A stretch of DNA of 64,000 nucleotides from assembly GCF_021246445.1 (NCBI RefSeq), contig NZ_JAJQXW010000003.1:62001-126000 (forward strand), read 5' to 3'. A program made the position numbers and the translations under genes. The notes beneath the pieces were generated by a model. The model did no database searches. It was given only the letters and a program-made list of their open reading frames with translations, and was not told where the DNA came from. Source of the stretch: Rhabdothermincola salaria. GTDB taxonomy: Bacteria; Actinomycetota; Acidimicrobiia; Acidimicrobiales; Acidimicrobilacustridaceae. Below are positions 7,517 to 14,784 of the stretch, in pieces. Position 1 is the stretch's first letter. Each line of letters opens with the position of its first letter.

Positions 7517-7549
7517 GGGCCCGGCGTCGCTCAGGCGACGTCCGGGCCC
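7517..7549. terminator. Bidirectional hairpin between lexA and dapE
   Basis: A 14-bp stem with one bulged T (arms 7517-7530 and 7535-7549) and the tetraloop TCAG lies at the ends of two convergent genes. The dapE stop codon sits in the loop. It can form on either strand and probably ends both transcripts. Confidence 0.7.
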
Positions 7550-8634
7550 CGGGTGACCAGGTCGTGGGTCGCCGTCCACACGGCATCGAGATGGCGCCGG
7601 TCGAGGTACTCGCCCTGGGTGTGGGCCACGGTGGAATCGCCCGGTCCGAAGTTGGCGGCCGGCACCCCCCGGGCCGCGAAGCGGGCCACGTCGGTCCATC
7701 CCAGCTTGGCCCGCACGGCCAGGTCGTTGCGCTCCACCAGGGTGGCGATGAGCGGGTGCGTGTGCGAGGGAGCTGCGCCCGACGCGCACTCGGTGCGCTC
7801 GACGGTGTCGCCGTCCGTGAGCCACGGGCCGAGCACCTCGCGCACGTGCGCCTCGGCCTCCTCCGCGCTGCGGTCGGGTGCGAAGCGGTGGTTGACCACC
7901 AGCTCCGCCTGGTCGGGAACGACGTTGCCGGCCACGCCGGCCTGCACCGAGACCGCCTGGAGCGCCTCGCGGAACTCGCAGCCGTCGATCACCGGGCGCC
8001 GCTCGACGTAGGCCTCGAGGTCGCCCAGCAGGCCGGCCAGGCGGTGGATGGCGTTGCGCCCCATCCACGGCCGAGCGGTGTGGGCCCGCGCCCCCCGCAG
8101 GGTGACGCGCAGGCGCATCGTGCCCTGGCAGCCGGCTTCGAGAGCGCCCTCGGTGGGCTCGCCGAGCAGGGCGGCGTCGGCCTCCAGCAGGTCGGGGCGT
8201 CGGTCGAAGAGCTCGCCCAGCCCGCTCTCGGCGGACCCGACCTCCTCGCGGGCGTAGAAGACGTAGGTGCAGTCGACCGCCGGCTCGCTCACCTCCAGCG
8301 CCAGCTGCAACATGACGGCCAGACCGCCCTTCATGTCGGCCGAGCCCACCCCGCTGAGGCGATCGCCGACGAGACGGGCCACGTCGTTGCCGTTGGCCGG
8401 CACGGTGTCGGTGTGCCCGGCGAGGGCCAGGCGCCACCGACGGCCGAGTCTGGTGCGAGCCACGAGGTTGTCACCGACGCGTGTGACCTCCAGGTGGGCG
8501 GCGGCCCGGAGCCGGTCCTCGAGCAGGTCGACCAGGGGAGCCTCCTCCCTCGACGGTGAGGCCACGTCGACCAGCTCGGCGGTGAGCGCGAGCAGATCGA
8601 CCCCGGCACCGACGGTGAGGGGTGACGCGGTCAT
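7531..8634 (-). CDS. dapE: Succinyl-diaminopimelate desuccinylase
   Basis: Dinuclear zinc M20-family hydrolase that removes succinate from N-succinyl-LL-diaminopimelate, making LL-DAP for lysine and cell wall. The 367-aa product has the metal and catalytic motifs in order: AGHTDTVP, GVGSADMKGG, AREEVGS and LLGEPTEG, with a C-terminal VAHTQGEY histidine. The ATG at 8634 lies 1 nt after the dapD stop, which indicates translational coupling; an alternative start at 8652 would overlap dapD. Full length for the family. Confidence 0.95.
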   Translation of the reverse strand: MTASPLTVGAGVDLLALTAELVDVASPSREEAPLVDLLEDRLRAAAHLEVTRVGDNLVARTRLGRRWRLALAGHTDTVPANGNDVARLVGDRLSGVGSADMKGGLAVMLQLALEVSEPAVDCTYVFYAREEVGSAESGLGELFDRRPDLLEADAALLGEPTEGALEAGCQGTMRLRVTLRGARAHTARPWMGRNAIHRLAGLLGDLEAYVERRPVIDGCEFREALQAVSVQAGVAGNVVPDQAELVVNHRFAPDRSAEEAEAHVREVLGPWLTDGDTVERTECASGAAPSHTHPLIATLVERNDLAVRAKLGWTDVARFAARGVPAANFGPGDSTVAHTQGEYLDRRHLDAVWTATHDLVTRGPDVA

Positions 8635-8635
8635 C

Positions 8636-9460
8636 TCAGGTGGCCGCGCCATGGGTGCGCAGCACGTCGTTGAGGGCGGCCTTGTCGTGGCGCTCGCCCT
8701 CGGACAGGCGCTTGATCACCAGCACGCACGGCAGACCGAACTCCCCGCCGGGGAAGGTGCGGCTGCGGGTGGCCGACACGGCGACGCACCAGGACGGCAC
8801 CACGCCGCGGCTGAGCTCCTCGCCGGTCTCGGCGTCGATGACGGGGATGGACCCGGTGAGGATGCAGCCGGCACCGAGCACGGCCCCGTCGCCCACCCGG
8901 GCGCCCTCGGCGACGATGCAGCGGCTGCCGATGAGGCAGTCGTCGCCCACGATCACCGGTGCCGCCTGAGGCGGCTCGAGCACGCCCCCGATGCCCACAC
9001 CCCCGGACAGATGCACGTTGGCGCCGATCTGGGCGCAAGAGCCGACGGTGGCCCAGGTGTCGACCATGGTGTTGGCCCCCACCCGGGCGCCGATGTTGGT
9101 GTAGCTCGGCATGAGCACCACCCCCCGGTCGAGGAAGGAGCCGTAGCGAGCCGAGGCACCGGGCACGACCCGCACCCCGGCGGCGGCGTAGTCGGACTTC
9201 AGCGGGATCTTGTCGGCGTACTCGAAGGGGCCGAGCTCGGTGGTGGCCATCTGCGACTGGCGGAAGTACAGCAGGATGGCGTGCTTGAGCCACTGGTGGA
9301 CCACGGGTTCACCGGAGGCATCGAGTTCGGCGACACGGGCGTCACCCCGGTCGAGCCGGGCGATCGCCTCGCCGATGGCGGTGTTGGCGTCCTGGTCGTC
9401 GGGGGTGAGCTCGCTCCGGCGTTCCCAGAGCTCGTCGATGGTTGCAGCGAGATCGGCCAT
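8636..9460 (-). CDS. dapD: 2,3,4,5-tetrahydropyridine-2,6-dicarboxylate N-succinyltransferase, E. coli-type
   Basis: Transfers succinate from succinyl-CoA to tetrahydrodipicolinate in the succinylase branch of DAP synthesis. The 274-aa protein has a helical N-terminal domain with VHQWLKHAILLYFR, then a left-handed beta-helix of hexapeptide repeats from about residue 100 (VLMPSYTNIGA, TMVDTWATVGS, VHLSGGVGIGGV). Length and motifs fit the E. coli-type family and not the roughly 317-aa family found in Mycobacterium and Corynebacterium. It is read before dapE. Confidence 0.94.
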   Translation of the reverse strand: MADLAATIDELWERRSELTPDDQDANTAIGEAIARLDRGDARVAELDASGEPVVHQWLKHAILLYFRQSQMATTELGPFEYADKIPLKSDYAAAGVRVVPGASARYGSFLDRGVVLMPSYTNIGARVGANTMVDTWATVGSCAQIGANVHLSGGVGIGGVLEPPQAAPVIVGDDCLIGSRCIVAEGARVGDGAVLGAGCILTGSIPVIDAETGEELSRGVVPSWCVAVSATRSRTFPGGEFGLPCVLVIKRLSEGERHDKAALNDVLRTHGAAT

Positions 9461-10470: not shown

Positions 10471-11601
10471 TCAGCCGACACCACGGAGACGGCGGGCCAG
10501 CAACTCCAGGCGGTCGTCGGGTTGGACCGCGGCGATGCGCACGAAGCCCGCCCCCTGGGGTCCGTAGAACTCCCCCGGGCTGACCAGGGCGCCGCCCTCC
10601 GCGGCCAGCCGCCGGGCCAGCCCCCACGCGTCGCCGTCGGGTGCTGCCACCCAGAGGTAGAAGGCACCGTCGGGCCGCGCCGCAAGGATGTCGCGCTCGC
10701 ACAGGGTGTCGGCCAGCAGGTCGAGGCGGGCCAGGTAGCGCCCGCACTGCTCGTCGACGTGCGCGTCGTCGCGCCACGCGGCCACGGCGGCGGCCTGCAC
10801 CGGTCCGGGCACCATGAACCCGGCGTGCTTGCGGAGCTCGGACAGGTAGTGCACCAGCTCGGCGTCGCCGGCGTAGAACCCGGCCCTCACCCCCGCCAGG
10901 TTCGAGCGTTTCGACAGCGAGTGCACGGCCAGGACCCCGTCGGTGCCGTGCTCGAGGATGGTGCGGCGAGGGCCCTGCCACGTGAACTCCACGTAGCACT
11001 CGTCGCTGGCGACGGGGACGCCGTGCGCTCGCCCCCAGGCGGCCGCAGGCCCGAGGTCGGTCACCGCTCCGGTGGGGTTGCCGGGCACGTTGACCCACAG
11101 GCACAGGGCTCGAGAGGCGTCGTCGGCAGAGATGGCGTCGAGGTCGGGAGCGCCGTCGGGGCCCGGGGGGACGGGCACCGCTCGGGCCCCGGCCAGCGTG
11201 GCCCCCATGGCGTAGCTCGGGTAGCTGATGGCGGGGTACAGCACGGTGTCGCGCGAGGGATCGCGCAGGCGCAGCCAGTGGGGCAGGCCGGCGACGAACT
11301 CCTTGGTCCCGATGCAGGCCGCGAGCTCGTCGACCGCCACGGTCACGCCCAGGCGACGCTCCAGCCATCCGGCGGCCGCGTCCCGGTACGCCGGCGACCC
11401 GATCGAGGCCGGGTACCCCCGCTCGGTGCCCGACGAGGACAGCGCGTCGAGCACGAACGCCGGCGGCGCATCGCACGGGGTGCCGATGGAGAGGTCGACC
11501 ACGCCGCCCTCGTGGGCGGCGGCCAGGGGCTCGAGCTCGCGCAGGCGGTCGTAGGGGTAGGGCGGGGGCACGAAGCCCGGCTGGTCACCTGGAGGCGTCA
11601 T
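10471..11601 (-). CDS. dapC: Succinyldiaminopimelate transaminase
   Basis: PLP-dependent fold-type I aminotransferase expected to convert N-succinyl-2-amino-6-ketopimelate to N-succinyl-LL-DAP with glutamate as donor. The 376-aa protein shows VNVPGNPTGAV near 170-180, the cofactor-binding ASDECY near 198-203, and the Schiff-base lysine K231 in SLSKRSNLAG. Placement beside dapD/dapE supports DapC over other class I aminotransferases. Sequence alone cannot fix substrate specificity. Confidence 0.87.
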   Translation of the reverse strand: MTPPGDQPGFVPPPYPYDRLRELEPLAAAHEGGVVDLSIGTPCDAPPAFVLDALSSSGTERGYPASIGSPAYRDAAAGWLERRLGVTVAVDELAACIGTKEFVAGLPHWLRLRDPSRDTVLYPAISYPSYAMGATLAGARAVPVPPGPDGAPDLDAISADDASRALCLWVNVPGNPTGAVTDLGPAAAWGRAHGVPVASDECYVEFTWQGPRRTILEHGTDGVLAVHSLSKRSNLAGVRAGFYAGDAELVHYLSELRKHAGFMVPGPVQAAAVAAWRDDAHVDEQCGRYLARLDLLADTLCERDILAARPDGAFYLWVAAPDGDAWGLARRLAAEGGALVSPGEFYGPQGAGFVRIAAVQPDDRLELLARRLRGVG

Positions 11602-11631: not shown

Positions 11632-12993
11632 TCATTCGACGACGAAGTCGCGCAGCCGGCTGGCCGACGCCTCGTCGAGGCGGGCCCGGACCGACATGCC
11701 CTCGTCGGTGGCGGTCTCGACCAGCACCTCCCCTTCGCGGTGCAACGAGGCCAGCACGTCGCCGCGCTCGAAGGGCACGACCAGCTCGACGACCTCTGCC
11801 AGGCCCCGGAGGCGATCGCCGATGGTGCGCAACAACACGTCGACGCCGTCGCCAGTGATGGCGCTGATGGCGACCGAGCCGGGGTGGGCGCGGGCCAGTC
11901 GCCGGGCGGCGACGGGGTCGAGGTCGGCCTTGTTGGCCACCACGAGCTGGGGCACCTCCCCGGCGCCGATCTCGTCGAGCACCGTGTTGACCGCGTCGAT
12001 GTGGGTCTCGGGATCGGGGCCGGAGCCGTCGACGACGTGCACCAACAGGTCGGCGTCGACCACGACCTCGAGCGTGGACTTGAAGGCCTCCACGAGCTGG
12101 TGGGGCAGCTTGGTGATGAACCCGACCGTGTCGGTGACCAGAACCGCCTCGCCGCCGGGGAGCTGCAACCGGCGGGTGGTGGCGTCGAGGGTGGCGAAGA
12201 GGCGGTCCTCCACCAGCACGCCGGCGTCGGTGAGGCGGTTGAGCAACGTCGACTTGCCGGCGTTGGTGTACCCGACGATGGCGACGGTGCTCAGGCGGGA
12301 TCGCTGGCGCGACTTGGCCTGGGTGGCGCGCACGCGTGAGACGTCGCGCAGCTCGGCTTCGAGCTTGTGCATGCGGCGCAGCAACCGGCGCCGATCGACC
12401 TCGAGCTGGGTCTCGCCGCCACCCTGGCGGGCGCCGATGCCGCCGCGCTGCTGCGACATCTGGGTGCCGCGACCTCGCAGGCGGGGCAGGCGGTAGCGGA
12501 TCTGAGCCAGCTCGACCTGGGCCTTGCCCTCCTGGGAGTGGGCGTTCTGGCCGAAGATGTCGAGGATCACCGCGGTGCGGTCGATGGCGGTACGACCCAG
12601 CGCCTTCTCCAGGTTGCGCTGCTGAGCGGGGCTGAGCTCGTCGTCGAACACCACCGTGTCGGCATCGAGCTGCTCGCACAGGGCCCGGAGCTCCTCGACC
12701 TTTCCGGCACCGAGGAACGTGGCCGGATCGGGGGTCTGACGCCGTTGGACCATGGTGGCGGCGGCGTCGGCGCCGGCGGTGTCGACCAGCAGCGCCAGCT
12801 CGTCGAGGTGGCGTTCGGTGTCCTCTTCGGTCTCGGGTGGCCGGGTGACCCCCACGAGCACGATCTGCTCCCGGAACGCCCGGTCGATGAGCCCACCCGA
12901 CTCACCACCGAAGTCGCCGAACGCCCCGCGGTGGCCCCCCGGCGCGCCGGTCGAAGCCGGGTCGCGGCGACGGCCGGTGCCGTCGTCACCCAT
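11632..12993 (-). CDS. hflX: Ribosome-associated GTPase HflX
   Basis: OBG-HflX family GTPase that binds the 50S subunit and rescues or splits stalled ribosomes. The 453-aa protein has the HflX N-terminal domain (about 40-150, with GAGKVEEL), a coiled-coil/linker rich in Arg/Gln (about 160-230), then a G domain starting at P-loop GYTNAGKS (241-248), DTVGF and NKAD, and a C-terminal domain. The first 30 residues are a low-complexity tail. Its start overlaps the dapF stop by 8 nt, an arrangement common in Actinobacteria. Confidence 0.96.
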   Translation of the reverse strand: MGDDGTGRRRDPASTGAPGGHRGAFGDFGGESGGLIDRAFREQIVLVGVTRPPETEEDTERHLDELALLVDTAGADAAATMVQRRQTPDPATFLGAGKVEELRALCEQLDADTVVFDDELSPAQQRNLEKALGRTAIDRTAVILDIFGQNAHSQEGKAQVELAQIRYRLPRLRGRGTQMSQQRGGIGARQGGGETQLEVDRRRLLRRMHKLEAELRDVSRVRATQAKSRQRSRLSTVAIVGYTNAGKSTLLNRLTDAGVLVEDRLFATLDATTRRLQLPGGEAVLVTDTVGFITKLPHQLVEAFKSTLEVVVDADLLVHVVDGSGPDPETHIDAVNTVLDEIGAGEVPQLVVANKADLDPVAARRLARAHPGSVAISAITGDGVDVLLRTIGDRLRGLAEVVELVVPFERGDVLASLHREGEVLVETATDEGMSVRARLDEASASRLRDFVVE

Positions 12994-13801
12994 CAGCGAG
13001 CTCGAGGGTGGCGACGTGCTGGGAGGGGCCGATCAGGAGCGGTTCGTCGCCGCCGAGCACGACGTCGGCGGTGCCGCCCGGCATGCTCACCTGGACCTGG
13101 GCACCCACGAGACCCCACCTGTGGGCGAGGTGGGCCGCGGCGGTGGCGCCTGTGCCGCACGCCGCGGTGGCACCGGCCCCGCGCTCCCAGACCAGCAGCT
13201 CGATGGTGTCCGTGCCGGGCTCCACGGTGATGTACTCGACGTTGACCCCCGCCGGGAAGCGCTGCTCGAACCAGGAGCCCTCTCCGGTGAGCTCGACGGA
13301 CGCCAGGTCGTCGACCAGCACGACGAGGTGGGGGTTGCCCAGGTCGGCGGTGCCGTGCCGTCGCTCGCCGAGGCGCTCGGCCACCGACGCCGGCACCTCC
13401 GGCCCGGCGCCCACCGAGCCCATGGAGACGCTGACCGTGGCCACCCGGTGCTCGGCGTCGTCGTGCACAACGAGGTGACGGGGACCGCCCTCGGTGGCGA
13501 CGAGGTAGTGCACCTCGTGCTCGTCGCGAGCCATGGCCATGGCGTGCCCGAGACAACGGATGCCGTTGCCGCTCATCTCGGCCCGGCTGCCGTCGGCGTT
13601 CCAGAGCTCCATGACCACGGCGATGCCCTCACCGTCGTCGGGGCGGGGGCGGCGCCCGACGATGAGGCCGTCGGCGCCCACCCCCCGACGGCGGTCGCAG
13701 AGCGCGCGGGCGCGGTCGGCGTCCACGTCGAGGGGGCCGTTGACCTCTTCGAGCGCGACGAGGAAGTCGTTGCCCAGTCCGTGGTGCTTGGTGAGCTGCA
13801 T
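12986..13801 (-). CDS. dapF: Diaminopimelate epimerase, first catalytic Cys replaced by Ser
   Basis: Interconverts LL- and meso-diaminopimelate without cofactor, normally using two cysteines as acid and base. The 271-aa protein starts at 13801 (MQLTKHHGLGNDF), the conserved family N-terminus. The second catalytic cysteine is intact (C215 in ACGTGAT). At the first site the usual CGNG reads SGNG: the codon is AGC, giving S77, with C83 six residues later. The serine is clear in the DNA. Whether activity survives, or C83 takes over, cannot be told from sequence. It lies between miaA and hflX. Confidence 0.93.
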   Translation of the reverse strand: MQLTKHHGLGNDFLVALEEVNGPLDVDADRARALCDRRRGVGADGLIVGRRPRPDDGEGIAVVMELWNADGSRAEMSGNGIRCLGHAMAMARDEHEVHYLVATEGGPRHLVVHDDAEHRVATVSVSMGSVGAGPEVPASVAERLGERRHGTADLGNPHLVVLVDDLASVELTGEGSWFEQRFPAGVNVEYITVEPGTDTIELLVWERGAGATAACGTGATAAAHLAHRWGLVGAQVQVSMPGGTADVVLGGDEPLLIGPSQHVATLELADG

Positions 13802-13809
13802 GATGGGTC

Positions 13810-14784
13810 TCAGTCTCTCAGCATCGACGCCAAAGCGGCGACGGCGTTCTCCTCGTCGGGGGGATCGATGCGCCCGGCTCCGCCGTGGGATGCGGGACCG
13901 AGGTCCAGCCACTCGATCCTCGGGTCGCGGCGGAACCAACGCTGCTGACGGCGAGCGAAGCGGCGCGTGCGGGTGACGGCGGTGGCGAGGGCCTCGTCGA
14001 GGGGGGTGCCGTGCTCGAGGTGGTCGAGGATCTCGGCGTAGCCCAACGCCTGGCGGGCCGTGGGCGACAGCCCCCCGGGGCGGGCGGTCAGGGCGACCAC
14101 CTCCTCGAGGAACCCGTCGGCCATCTGGGTCTGGTAGCGGTGCTCGATGCGCGCGTCGAGCAGCGGCCGCTCGAGGCGGAGGCCGACGACCGGGAAGGGT
14201 GTCGGCGGGTACGACTCGAGACCGGGCCCGAACGACGAGAACGGACGTCCGGCGCCGAGCGTGACCTCGAGCGCCCGCACCACCCGACGCCGGTTGGTGG
14301 GCTCCATCCGGGCCGCGGCGAGGGGATCGAGGGCGCGGAGGCGCTCGTGGAGGCTGACGGTGTCGGTCTCGGCATCCAGCTCGGATCGGATCTCGGGGTA
14401 GCGCCCGGGGATCTGCAGGTCGTCCACGACGGCCTGCAAGTAGAGGCCCGTCCCGCCCACGAGCAGGCCCCGCCGGCCGCGGGCCTCGATGTCGGCGAGC
14501 ACTGCGTAGGCGTCGGCCTTGAAGCGCGAGACCGTGTACTCCTCGTCGGGGTCGACCAGGTCGAGGAGGTGGTGGGGCACCTCGGCGCGCTCGGCAGCGG
14601 TGGGTTTGGCCGTACCGACGTCCATGCCCCGATACACCTGCATCGAGTCGACGGTGACGATCTCCACCTCGGGGTGGCGTCGGGCCACCTCGAGGGCCAG
14701 CGCGGACTTGCCCGAGGCCGTGGGCCCCACCAGCGCCAGGTGACGGCCACCCGGGCGATAGCCGGCGGGGGCATGGGGGGGCAC
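13810..14784 (-). CDS. miaA: tRNA dimethylallyltransferase
   Basis: Adds an isopentenyl group from DMAPP to A37 of tRNAs reading U-starting codons; MiaB then methylthiolates the product. The 324-aa protein starts with GTG at 14784, 4 nt after the miaB stop, so the two are coupled. The P-loop GPTASGKS (20-27) is at the N-terminus, followed by TVDSMQVYRGMDVGTAKP and a C-terminal TRRFARRQQRWFRRD basic segment. Longer upstream reading is a shadow of miaB. Confidence 0.96.
   Translation of the reverse strand: MPPHAPAGYRPGGRHLALVGPTASGKSALALEVARRHPEVEIVTVDSMQVYRGMDVGTAKPTAAERAEVPHHLLDLVDPDEEYTVSRFKADAYAVLADIEARGRRGLLVGGTGLYLQAVVDDLQIPGRYPEIRSELDAETDTVSLHERLRALDPLAAARMEPTNRRRVVRALEVTLGAGRPFSSFGPGLESYPPTPFPVVGLRLERPLLDARIEHRYQTQMADGFLEEVVALTARPGGLSPTARQALGYAEILDHLEHGTPLDEALATAVTRTRRFARRQQRWFRRDPRIEWLDLGPASHGGAGRIDPPDEENAVAALASMLRD

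What the first reader, a model, noticed from the sequence alone, without database searches (positions are those of the whole stretch)
13559..13590. DapF has serine at the first catalytic cysteine position
The DNA reads AGC at the codon that is Cys in the DapF active-site motif CGNG, giving NADGSRAEMSGNG. The partner cysteine C215 (ACGTGAT) is intact. DapF is known as a two-base epimerase with two cysteines. A one-sided Ser could weaken racemisation, change specificity, or be rescued by C83 six residues later. With dapC, dapD and dapE present, LL-DAP would accumulate if DapF were weak, which bears on whether the wall uses LL- or meso-DAP.
Basis: partly seen in the sequence, partly recalled or inferred. 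Interest (0 to 1): 0.6.

Follow-up and report, generated by a model that had tools for sequence, protein, structure and literature searches.

The report
DapF with serine replacing catalytic cysteine
The enzyme that makes meso-diaminopimelate in this bacterium carries a serine where textbooks require a cysteine; the change is shared across its order, and some distant relatives have lost both catalytic cysteines while still building meso-diaminopimelate walls.

Summary
dapF (window 12986-13801, minus strand) reads AGC, Ser77, where Haemophilus DapF has Cys73; Cys215, His158 and Glu206 are intact.

It is not an error. All 58 DapFs read from the window's order have Ser there, inside a 94-row Ser/Thr clade. 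The genome matches Rhabdothermincola salaria EGI L10124T by contig statistics, a strain reported to have meso-DAP. It has one DapF, a lysA, and no meso-DAP dehydrogenase above cut-off. Two further Ser/Cys species, identified likewise, also have meso-DAP. So the Ser enzyme most likely works in vivo.

The wider result is stronger. Position 77 changed at least 8 times and 215 at least 8 times in the Actinomycetota sample. All 56 genomes read from the order holding Conexibacter woesei (100 had a match) have Ser at both positions plus Gln for His158, with lysA and no dehydrogenase where tested, although C. woesei peptidoglycan is meso-A2pm.

Engineered Cys-to-Ser versions of this fold are nearly dead, but a natural Ser/Cys hydroxyproline epimerase is active. 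Activity was not measured here.

The parts
12986..13801 (-). dapF, 271 codons plus stop; S/C-type diaminopimelate epimerase
   Evidence: TIGR00652 190.7 bits over cut-off 114.65; model mean pLDDT 92.5; Foldseek rank 2 is the Haemophilus C73S mutant 2q9h
13571..13573 (-). AGC codon, Ser77, at the first catalytic cysteine position (Cys73 of Haemophilus DapF)
   Evidence: sequence; alignment to solved DapFs
13157..13159 (-). TGC codon, Cys215, second catalytic cysteine (Cys217 of Haemophilus DapF), intact
13553..13555 (-).
   Evidence: 92 of 120 C/C rows and 86 of 97 S/C rows
13328..13330 (-). CAC codon, His158, conserved active-site histidine (an essential His and Glu of DapF are named in PMC5885031, passages; the Haemophilus number H159 is recalled)
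   Evidence: H in 97 of 97 S/C rows
13184..13186 (-). GAG codon, Glu206, conserved active-site glutamate (Haemophilus number E208 recalled)
   Evidence: E in 242 of 242 rows
13810..14775 (-). miaA, directly upstream of dapF, 8 bases between; start codon assumed
   Evidence: TIGR00174 244.8 bits, cut-off 148.65
11632..12993 (-). hflX, downstream, overlapping the dapF stop if its first start is used
   Evidence: TIGR03156 442.1 bits, cut-off 216.75
10471..11601 (-). dapC-like succinyl-DAP aminotransferase
   Evidence: best model TIGR03539 330.4 bits, below its cut-off 355.65
8636..9460 (-). dapD
   Evidence: NF008808 305.5 bits, cut-off 204
7531..8652 (-). dapE, succinyl-DAP desuccinylase (product LL-DAP)
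   Evidence: TIGR01900 427.3 bits, cut-off 304.2

Best explanation
The gene is the working diaminopimelate epimerase of this organism, a lineage-wide Ser/Cys version of DapF. It binds LL-DAP as DapF does and epimerises one alpha carbon by the same two-face proton transfer, with Cys215 as one acid/base and Ser77, held just before a helix, as the other. Shown here: the residue swap, its conservation in every row read from the order, the intact rest of the active site, the single copy, and the absence of the known bypass enzyme above cut-off. Taken from print: meso-DAP in three such species. Inferred: that this protein makes that meso-DAP, and that Ser77 itself moves the proton rather than a water or a neighbouring group.
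For: TIGR00652 equivalog hit; one DapF locus in the genome; Ser in 58 of 58 order rows, inside a 94-row clade (92 S/C, one S/S, one T/C); columns near-invariant in C/C rows keep the same commonest residue in S/C rows except 77, with looser conservation at a few, 211 above all; lysA over cut-off in 13 of 18 S/C genomes tested, weaker in 2, not found in 3; DAP dehydrogenase over cut-off in 0 of 52 genomes, while 2 of 14 control genomes pass; dapE, dapD and a dapC-like gene within 7 kb; reported meso-DAP for R. salaria (G000: contig C1 2,005,197, 7 contigs, 97.83/0.25), I. majanohamensis (G020: 4,576,919) and A. ferrooxidans (G109: 2,158,157), all three with Ser/Cys DapF and lysA; an active natural Ser/Cys 4-hydroxyproline epimerase of the proline racemase superfamily (PMC4113996, passages).
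Against: No activity was measured. PMC8225329 reports under 0.1% activity for Cys mutants of PddB and says the same was reported for Cys-to-Ser M. tuberculosis DapF (passages); PMC11602996 reports greatly reduced turnover for HisR C67S and C209S (passages); [quoted passage not shown] lysA was not found in 3 S/C genomes and only weakly in 2. Glu211, 114 of 120 in C/C rows, is kept in only 47 of 97 S/C rows. A second, unknown epimerase is not excluded.
Confidence: 0.8

Rival explanations
1. The Ser protein is a crippled or very slow epimerase, and an unrecognised second enzyme supplies most of the meso-DAP.
For: Engineered Cys-to-Ser versions are nearly inactive. Recalled, not read: E. coli dapF mutants are not strict meso-DAP auxotrophs.
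Against: Ser is conserved over a 94-row clade and the active site stays intact, which is not the pattern of a decaying gene; DAP dehydrogenase was over cut-off in 0 of 74 different genomes (52 and 30, 8 of them in both), and a second PF01678 protein was found in only 1 of 41 genomes (G097).
Confidence: 0.12
2. The protein has become a racemase for another amino acid, as the predicted DapF of Fusobacterium nucleatum turned out to be a histidine racemase.
For: PMC11602996 documents such a case (passages).
Against: The TIGR00652 score is well over cut-off, the gene sits near dapE, dapD and a dapC-like gene, it is the only DapF in the genome, and lysA in the same genome needs meso-DAP (established knowledge).
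Confidence: 0.05
3. Ser at this place is selected because it makes DapF insensitive to oxidation: the two catalytic cysteines of C. glutamicum DapF close into an inactivating disulfide, which a Ser form cannot make.
For: Disulfide switch and loss of activity with H2O2 in C. glutamicum DapF (PMC5296763, passages); repeated loss of one or both cysteines.
Against: No test here links the Ser state to oxygen or redox life style. This concerns why, not what, and is compatible with the best explanation.
Confidence: 0.3
4. Sequencing error or pseudogene.
For: None found.
Against: The same state in 58 of 58 order rows, an open frame, and a high-confidence fold.
Confidence: 0.01

Closest known systems
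Cys/Cys diaminopimelate epimerase DapF (H. influenzae, E. coli, C. glutamicum)
   Same: Fold, length, near-invariant active-site columns, second catalytic cysteine, single copy near other DAP genes
   Different: First catalytic cysteine is serine, a state that I found in print only as a laboratory mutant (C73S, PDB 2q9h)
Natural Ser/Cys 4-hydroxyproline 2-epimerase from Agrobacterium vitis (proline racemase superfamily, PMC4113996)
   Same: Natural Ser93 on one face and a Cys on the other (Cys255 in the text, Cys236 in the legend), reported to epimerise; DapF-like fold (passages)
   Different: Different family and substrate; for a Ser member of that family the authors describe an Asn three residues on that positions the serine, while in DapF the Asn is two residues on and is present in Cys forms too
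Ser/Ser/Gln DapF of the order of Conexibacter woesei
   Same: DapF by TIGR00652 (99 of 101 genomes over cut-off), lysA present, DAP dehydrogenase absent above cut-off
   Different: Both cysteines and the histidine are gone (56 of 56 genomes read); a separate branch of the tree

Membership tests
NCBIfam TIGR00652 DapF (equivalog) | Whole-protein score over 114.65 bits | tested here: met
   190.7 bits, positions 1-266 of 270
DapF fold | DapF-like fold with the catalytic residues just before two helices | tested here: met
   Mean pLDDT 92.5; Ser77 and Cys215 (residues 78 and 216 of the 272-residue model) just before helices 79-92 and 217-229; the first 26 Foldseek rows are DapF or O-ureidoserine racemase entries, RppH-DapF complexes included.
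Two-cysteine (thiolate-thiol) DapF, PROSITE signature as quoted in PMC8225329 | Cys in N-x-(DN)-(GS)-(SENGFT)-x(4)-C-(GI)-N-(GA)-x-R | tested here: not met
   The window reads NADGSRAEMSGNGIR, Ser at the Cys place
Two-cysteine (thiolate-thiol) DapF | Second catalytic cysteine, ACGTG | tested here: met
   Cys215
DapF | Active-site His and Glu | tested here: met
   His158, Glu206
DapF | Epimerises LL-DAP to meso-DAP | not testable with these tools
   Inferred from reported meso-DAP, lysA, single copy and missing bypass
DapF | Genome context of the DAP pathway | tested here: met
   dapE, dapD, dapC-like within 7 kb; dapE within 10 kb of dapF in G020 and G109 by coordinates; not so in G141, which has no dapE over that cut-off

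The most novel reading that the evidence does not exclude
DapF does not need cysteine chemistry. Actinomycetota repeatedly replaced either or both catalytic cysteines by serine, and one order runs meso-DAP synthesis on an epimerase with Ser, Ser and Gln in place of Cys, Cys and His, that is, a thiol-free way to abstract an unactivated amino acid alpha proton. The window's enzyme is one branch of this, with one thiol left.
Probability: 0.45. Interest if true: 0.85.

Novelty: new variant of a known kind. Interest (0 to 1): 0.62.

Why it matters
DapF is a model for cofactor-free racemases and a drug target, and the papers seen here treat both cysteines as the catalytic pair. Natural Ser/Cys and Ser/Ser forms in organisms that must make meso-DAP would show that the chemistry can run without a thiolate-thiol pair, make the question of how such a weak acid-base pair can work directly testable with ready-made proteins, and warn that inhibitors which attack the first cysteine would miss whole lineages. 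Signatures that demand the cysteine also miss these proteins.

Tried and rejected
Rejected: base error or pseudogene. Rejected: C83 as a special rescue residue. Rejected as unproven: loss of Glu211 as compensation for Ser77; it is relaxed in the Acidimicrobiia S/C clade but kept in the S/C families f47 and f74, and the paired test on the tree gave no signal, with too few pairs to reach significance. Rejected: meso-DAP dehydrogenase as bypass (0 of 52 and 0 of 30 genomes over cut-off; weak hits in 11 and 3 genomes, at most 29.4 bits against a cut-off of 180.6).

Limits. The rows are not a random sample: they are the loci the tools returned plus regions I chose, one or a few per family outside the class; many genomes with a listed match were not read (for example order members G257, G367, G376, G506, G521). 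Two genomes of the window's order gave no DapF match (G002; G215). FastTree and quick IQ-TREE trees have many weak forks; counts of changes are minima, give no direction, and at position 77 include the Ser/Thr difference. In the 112-row IQ-TREE tree the long-branched Ser/Cys row L143, which the first tree put inside the clade, fell far outside it; this may be why that tree needs 9 changes instead of 8. That tree used one row per family and type; rows under 235 residues and L153, L158, L172, L223, L242, L243 and L244 were dropped. The test of one clade for all 45 Ser/Thr-77 rows of that set gave p-AU 0.0326 for a group named after seeing the tree, so it is moderate evidence against a single origin. 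The genome-contig scan with a single protein found only two loci. Outside the phylum I read six named DapFs, all Cys/Cys (E. coli, and 5 from a list of 82 plasmid-collection records), and 14 viral-collection contigs, two of them fragments. TIGR01900 dapE was over cut-off in 17 of 41 genomes and not in C. woesei, so its LL-DAP route was not established; DapL was not searched. Literature searches that could have shown natural Ser in DapF listed no such report in the held open-access library, as far as titles, abstracts and the passages I opened go; subscription papers are not covered. Ilumatobacter as an LL-DAP genus is recalled only; the listing did not settle it.

Full report
What is there. 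The minus-strand gene at 12986-13801 encodes a 271-residue protein. It matches the DapF equivalog model TIGR00652 at 190.7 bits, cut-off 114.65; its nearest solved relatives by sequence are DapFs; its AlphaFold2 model has mean pLDDT 92.5; and the first 26 Foldseek rows are DapF or O-ureidoserine racemase entries, rank 2 being the laboratory C73S mutant of Haemophilus DapF. Residue 77 is Ser (AGC) where Haemophilus has Cys73; Cys215, His158 and Glu206 are intact. It is the only PF01678 protein found in the genome. Upstream are miaA and miaB, downstream hflX, then a dapC-like gene, dapD and dapE on the same strand.

Which organism. The genome has 3,908,307 bases in 7 contigs, completeness 97.83 and contamination 0.25, and its contig C1 is 2,005,197 bases. 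PMC12263773 (passages) lists 3.91 Mb, 7 contigs, N50 2,005,197, 97.83 and 0.25 for Rhabdothermincola salaria EGI L10124T, and gives meso-DAP for it in Table 4. The text of the same paper names Actinomarinicola tropica as an exception to meso-DAP, while its table gives dd-DAP for Dermatobacter hominis; the entry for R. salaria is not affected.

How widespread. I read DapF in 292 rows, one of them E. coli: 120 Cys/Cys, 97 Ser/Cys, 63 Ser/Ser, 10 Cys/Ser, 1 Thr/Cys and 1 incomplete. Before the order search there were 242 rows, 241 of which went into the first tree (the fragment L242 was left out). In that tree the window's protein lies in a 94-row clade with 99% local support: 58 rows of its own order and 36 of other orders of the class. 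All have Ser except one Thr (L084), and one (L010) has also lost the second cysteine. Other rows of the same class are Cys/Cys (43) or Cys/Ser (5). The fewest changes are 8 at position 77 and 8 at 215. A 112-row IQ-TREE tree with six DapFs from outside the phylum, in which the three varying catalytic columns were left out, gives 9 and 8; there one long-branched Ser/Cys row, L143, falls outside the clade, and the clade has 34 rows at 93% support. Holding all Ser/Thr-77 rows together is disfavoured with p-AU 0.0326. Serine codons are of both kinds, and the single Thr codon, ACC, is a one-step bridge between AGC and TCC.

Does it work. Three arguments. First, pathway: in 52 genomes chosen to span the types, lysA was over cut-off in 45 and DAP dehydrogenase in none. 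Among the 18 Ser/Cys genomes of that set lysA was over cut-off in 13, weaker in 2 (G301, G240) and not found in 3 (G437, G063, G088). Among the 14 genomes whose DapF is Ser/Ser only, it was over cut-off in 14. LysA acts on meso-DAP (established knowledge), so such cells need an epimerase. Second, the wall: R. salaria, I. majanohamensis (contig 4,576,919) and A. ferrooxidans (2,158,157) are Ser/Cys and reported to have meso-DAP. Third, constraint: in the columns that are at least 95% one residue in Cys/Cys rows, Ser/Cys rows keep the same commonest residue except at 77, though less strictly at a few, Glu211 above all (47 of 97).

The stronger case elsewhere in the phylum. A genome with a contig of 6,359,369 bases matches Conexibacter woesei (PMC3035278, passages: A1gamma peptidoglycan with meso-A2pm, the latter said to hold for all members of the Solirubrobacterales). 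In its order 100 of 101 genomes searched had a DapF match. I read DapF in 56 of these genomes; 56 of 56 have Ser at both positions and Gln at 158; a 57th row, L310, is a second, very divergent Cys/Cys copy in G590. In 30 genomes of the order (27 of which I had read; G245, G374 and G392 not), 30 have lysA over cut-off, 0 have DAP dehydrogenase over cut-off, and each has one PF01678 protein. Of 11 genomes read as Ser/Ser with a dapE over cut-off, 9 have it within 5 kb of dapF by coordinates, the other two on a different contig; the unread G245 has it within 5 kb as well. C. woesei itself has no dapE over that cut-off. Outside the three catalytic positions, the near-invariant columns of these Ser/Ser/Gln rows depart only at Phe13Tyr, Met64Leu, Val204Ile and Ala221Gly. 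Seven further Ser/Ser rows from other families keep the histidine.

What is known. Laboratory Cys-to-Ser versions of this fold are nearly dead: under 0.1% for PddB, said there to match M. tuberculosis DapF (PMC8225329, passages), and greatly reduced for HisR (PMC11602996, passages). [quoted passage not shown] So serine in this place is compatible with epimerisation when the rest of the site has evolved with it. I found no paper on natural serine DapFs in the held library (searches; listings and some passages seen).

How it most likely works. Ser77 and Cys215 sit just before two helices of the model; that they face each other across the cleft follows from the known DapF fold, since no coordinates were available. 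I infer the usual two-face proton transfer with Cys215 as one partner and Ser77 as the other, the serine helped by its helix start and by His158. That the first position is the base towards LL-DAP is recalled from the aziDAP work, not shown here. A possible reason for the swap is protection from the inactivating disulfide seen in C. glutamicum DapF (PMC5296763, passages); this is a hypothesis without a test here.

Verdict. By model score, fold and context this is an orthologue of DapF and most likely works like one; it does not meet the two-cysteine signature that defines the textbook enzyme, so it is best called a Ser/Cys variant. For the window alone the finding is of moderate interest; the repeated loss, up to a cysteine-free catalytic pair in an order that makes meso-DAP, raises it.

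Noticed in passing
L291 (G613), L224, L231-L234, L238-L240, L262-L309: DapFs of the order of Conexibacter woesei lack both catalytic cysteines and have Gln for His158, in 56 of 56 genomes read.
   Followed up: partly
L085, L094, L096, L110, L124 (f22); L200, L216, L220; L202, L203; L314-L316 (viral-collection contigs): Cys/Ser DapFs: the second catalytic cysteine is serine instead, in several branches and in three IMG/VR contigs.
   Followed up: partly
L084 (G461): Thr (ACC) at the first catalytic position inside the Ser clade; ACC is a one-step codon bridge between AGC and TCC serine.
   Followed up: no
L186 and L205 (G097): One genome with two DapFs, one Cys/Cys and one Ser/Ser with an altered first motif.
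   Followed up: no
window 13169-13171 (Ala211) and S/C rows: The glutamate four residues before the second catalytic cysteine is near-invariant in Cys/Cys DapFs (114 of 120) but kept in only 47 of 97 Ser/Cys rows; the window has Ala.
   Followed up: partly
L317-L322: Six viral-collection contigs carry a short DapF-like protein with the motif KDMTTAxMCGNAIRC in place of NADGS.
   Followed up: no
G437, G063, G088: Ser/Cys genomes in which no lysA was found; incomplete assemblies or lysine auxotrophs are possible reasons.
   Followed up: no
PMC12263773, Table 4 and text: Table and text disagree on which Iamiaceae species departs from meso-DAP (Dermatobacter hominis with dd-DAP, or Actinomarinicola tropica).
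   Followed up: no
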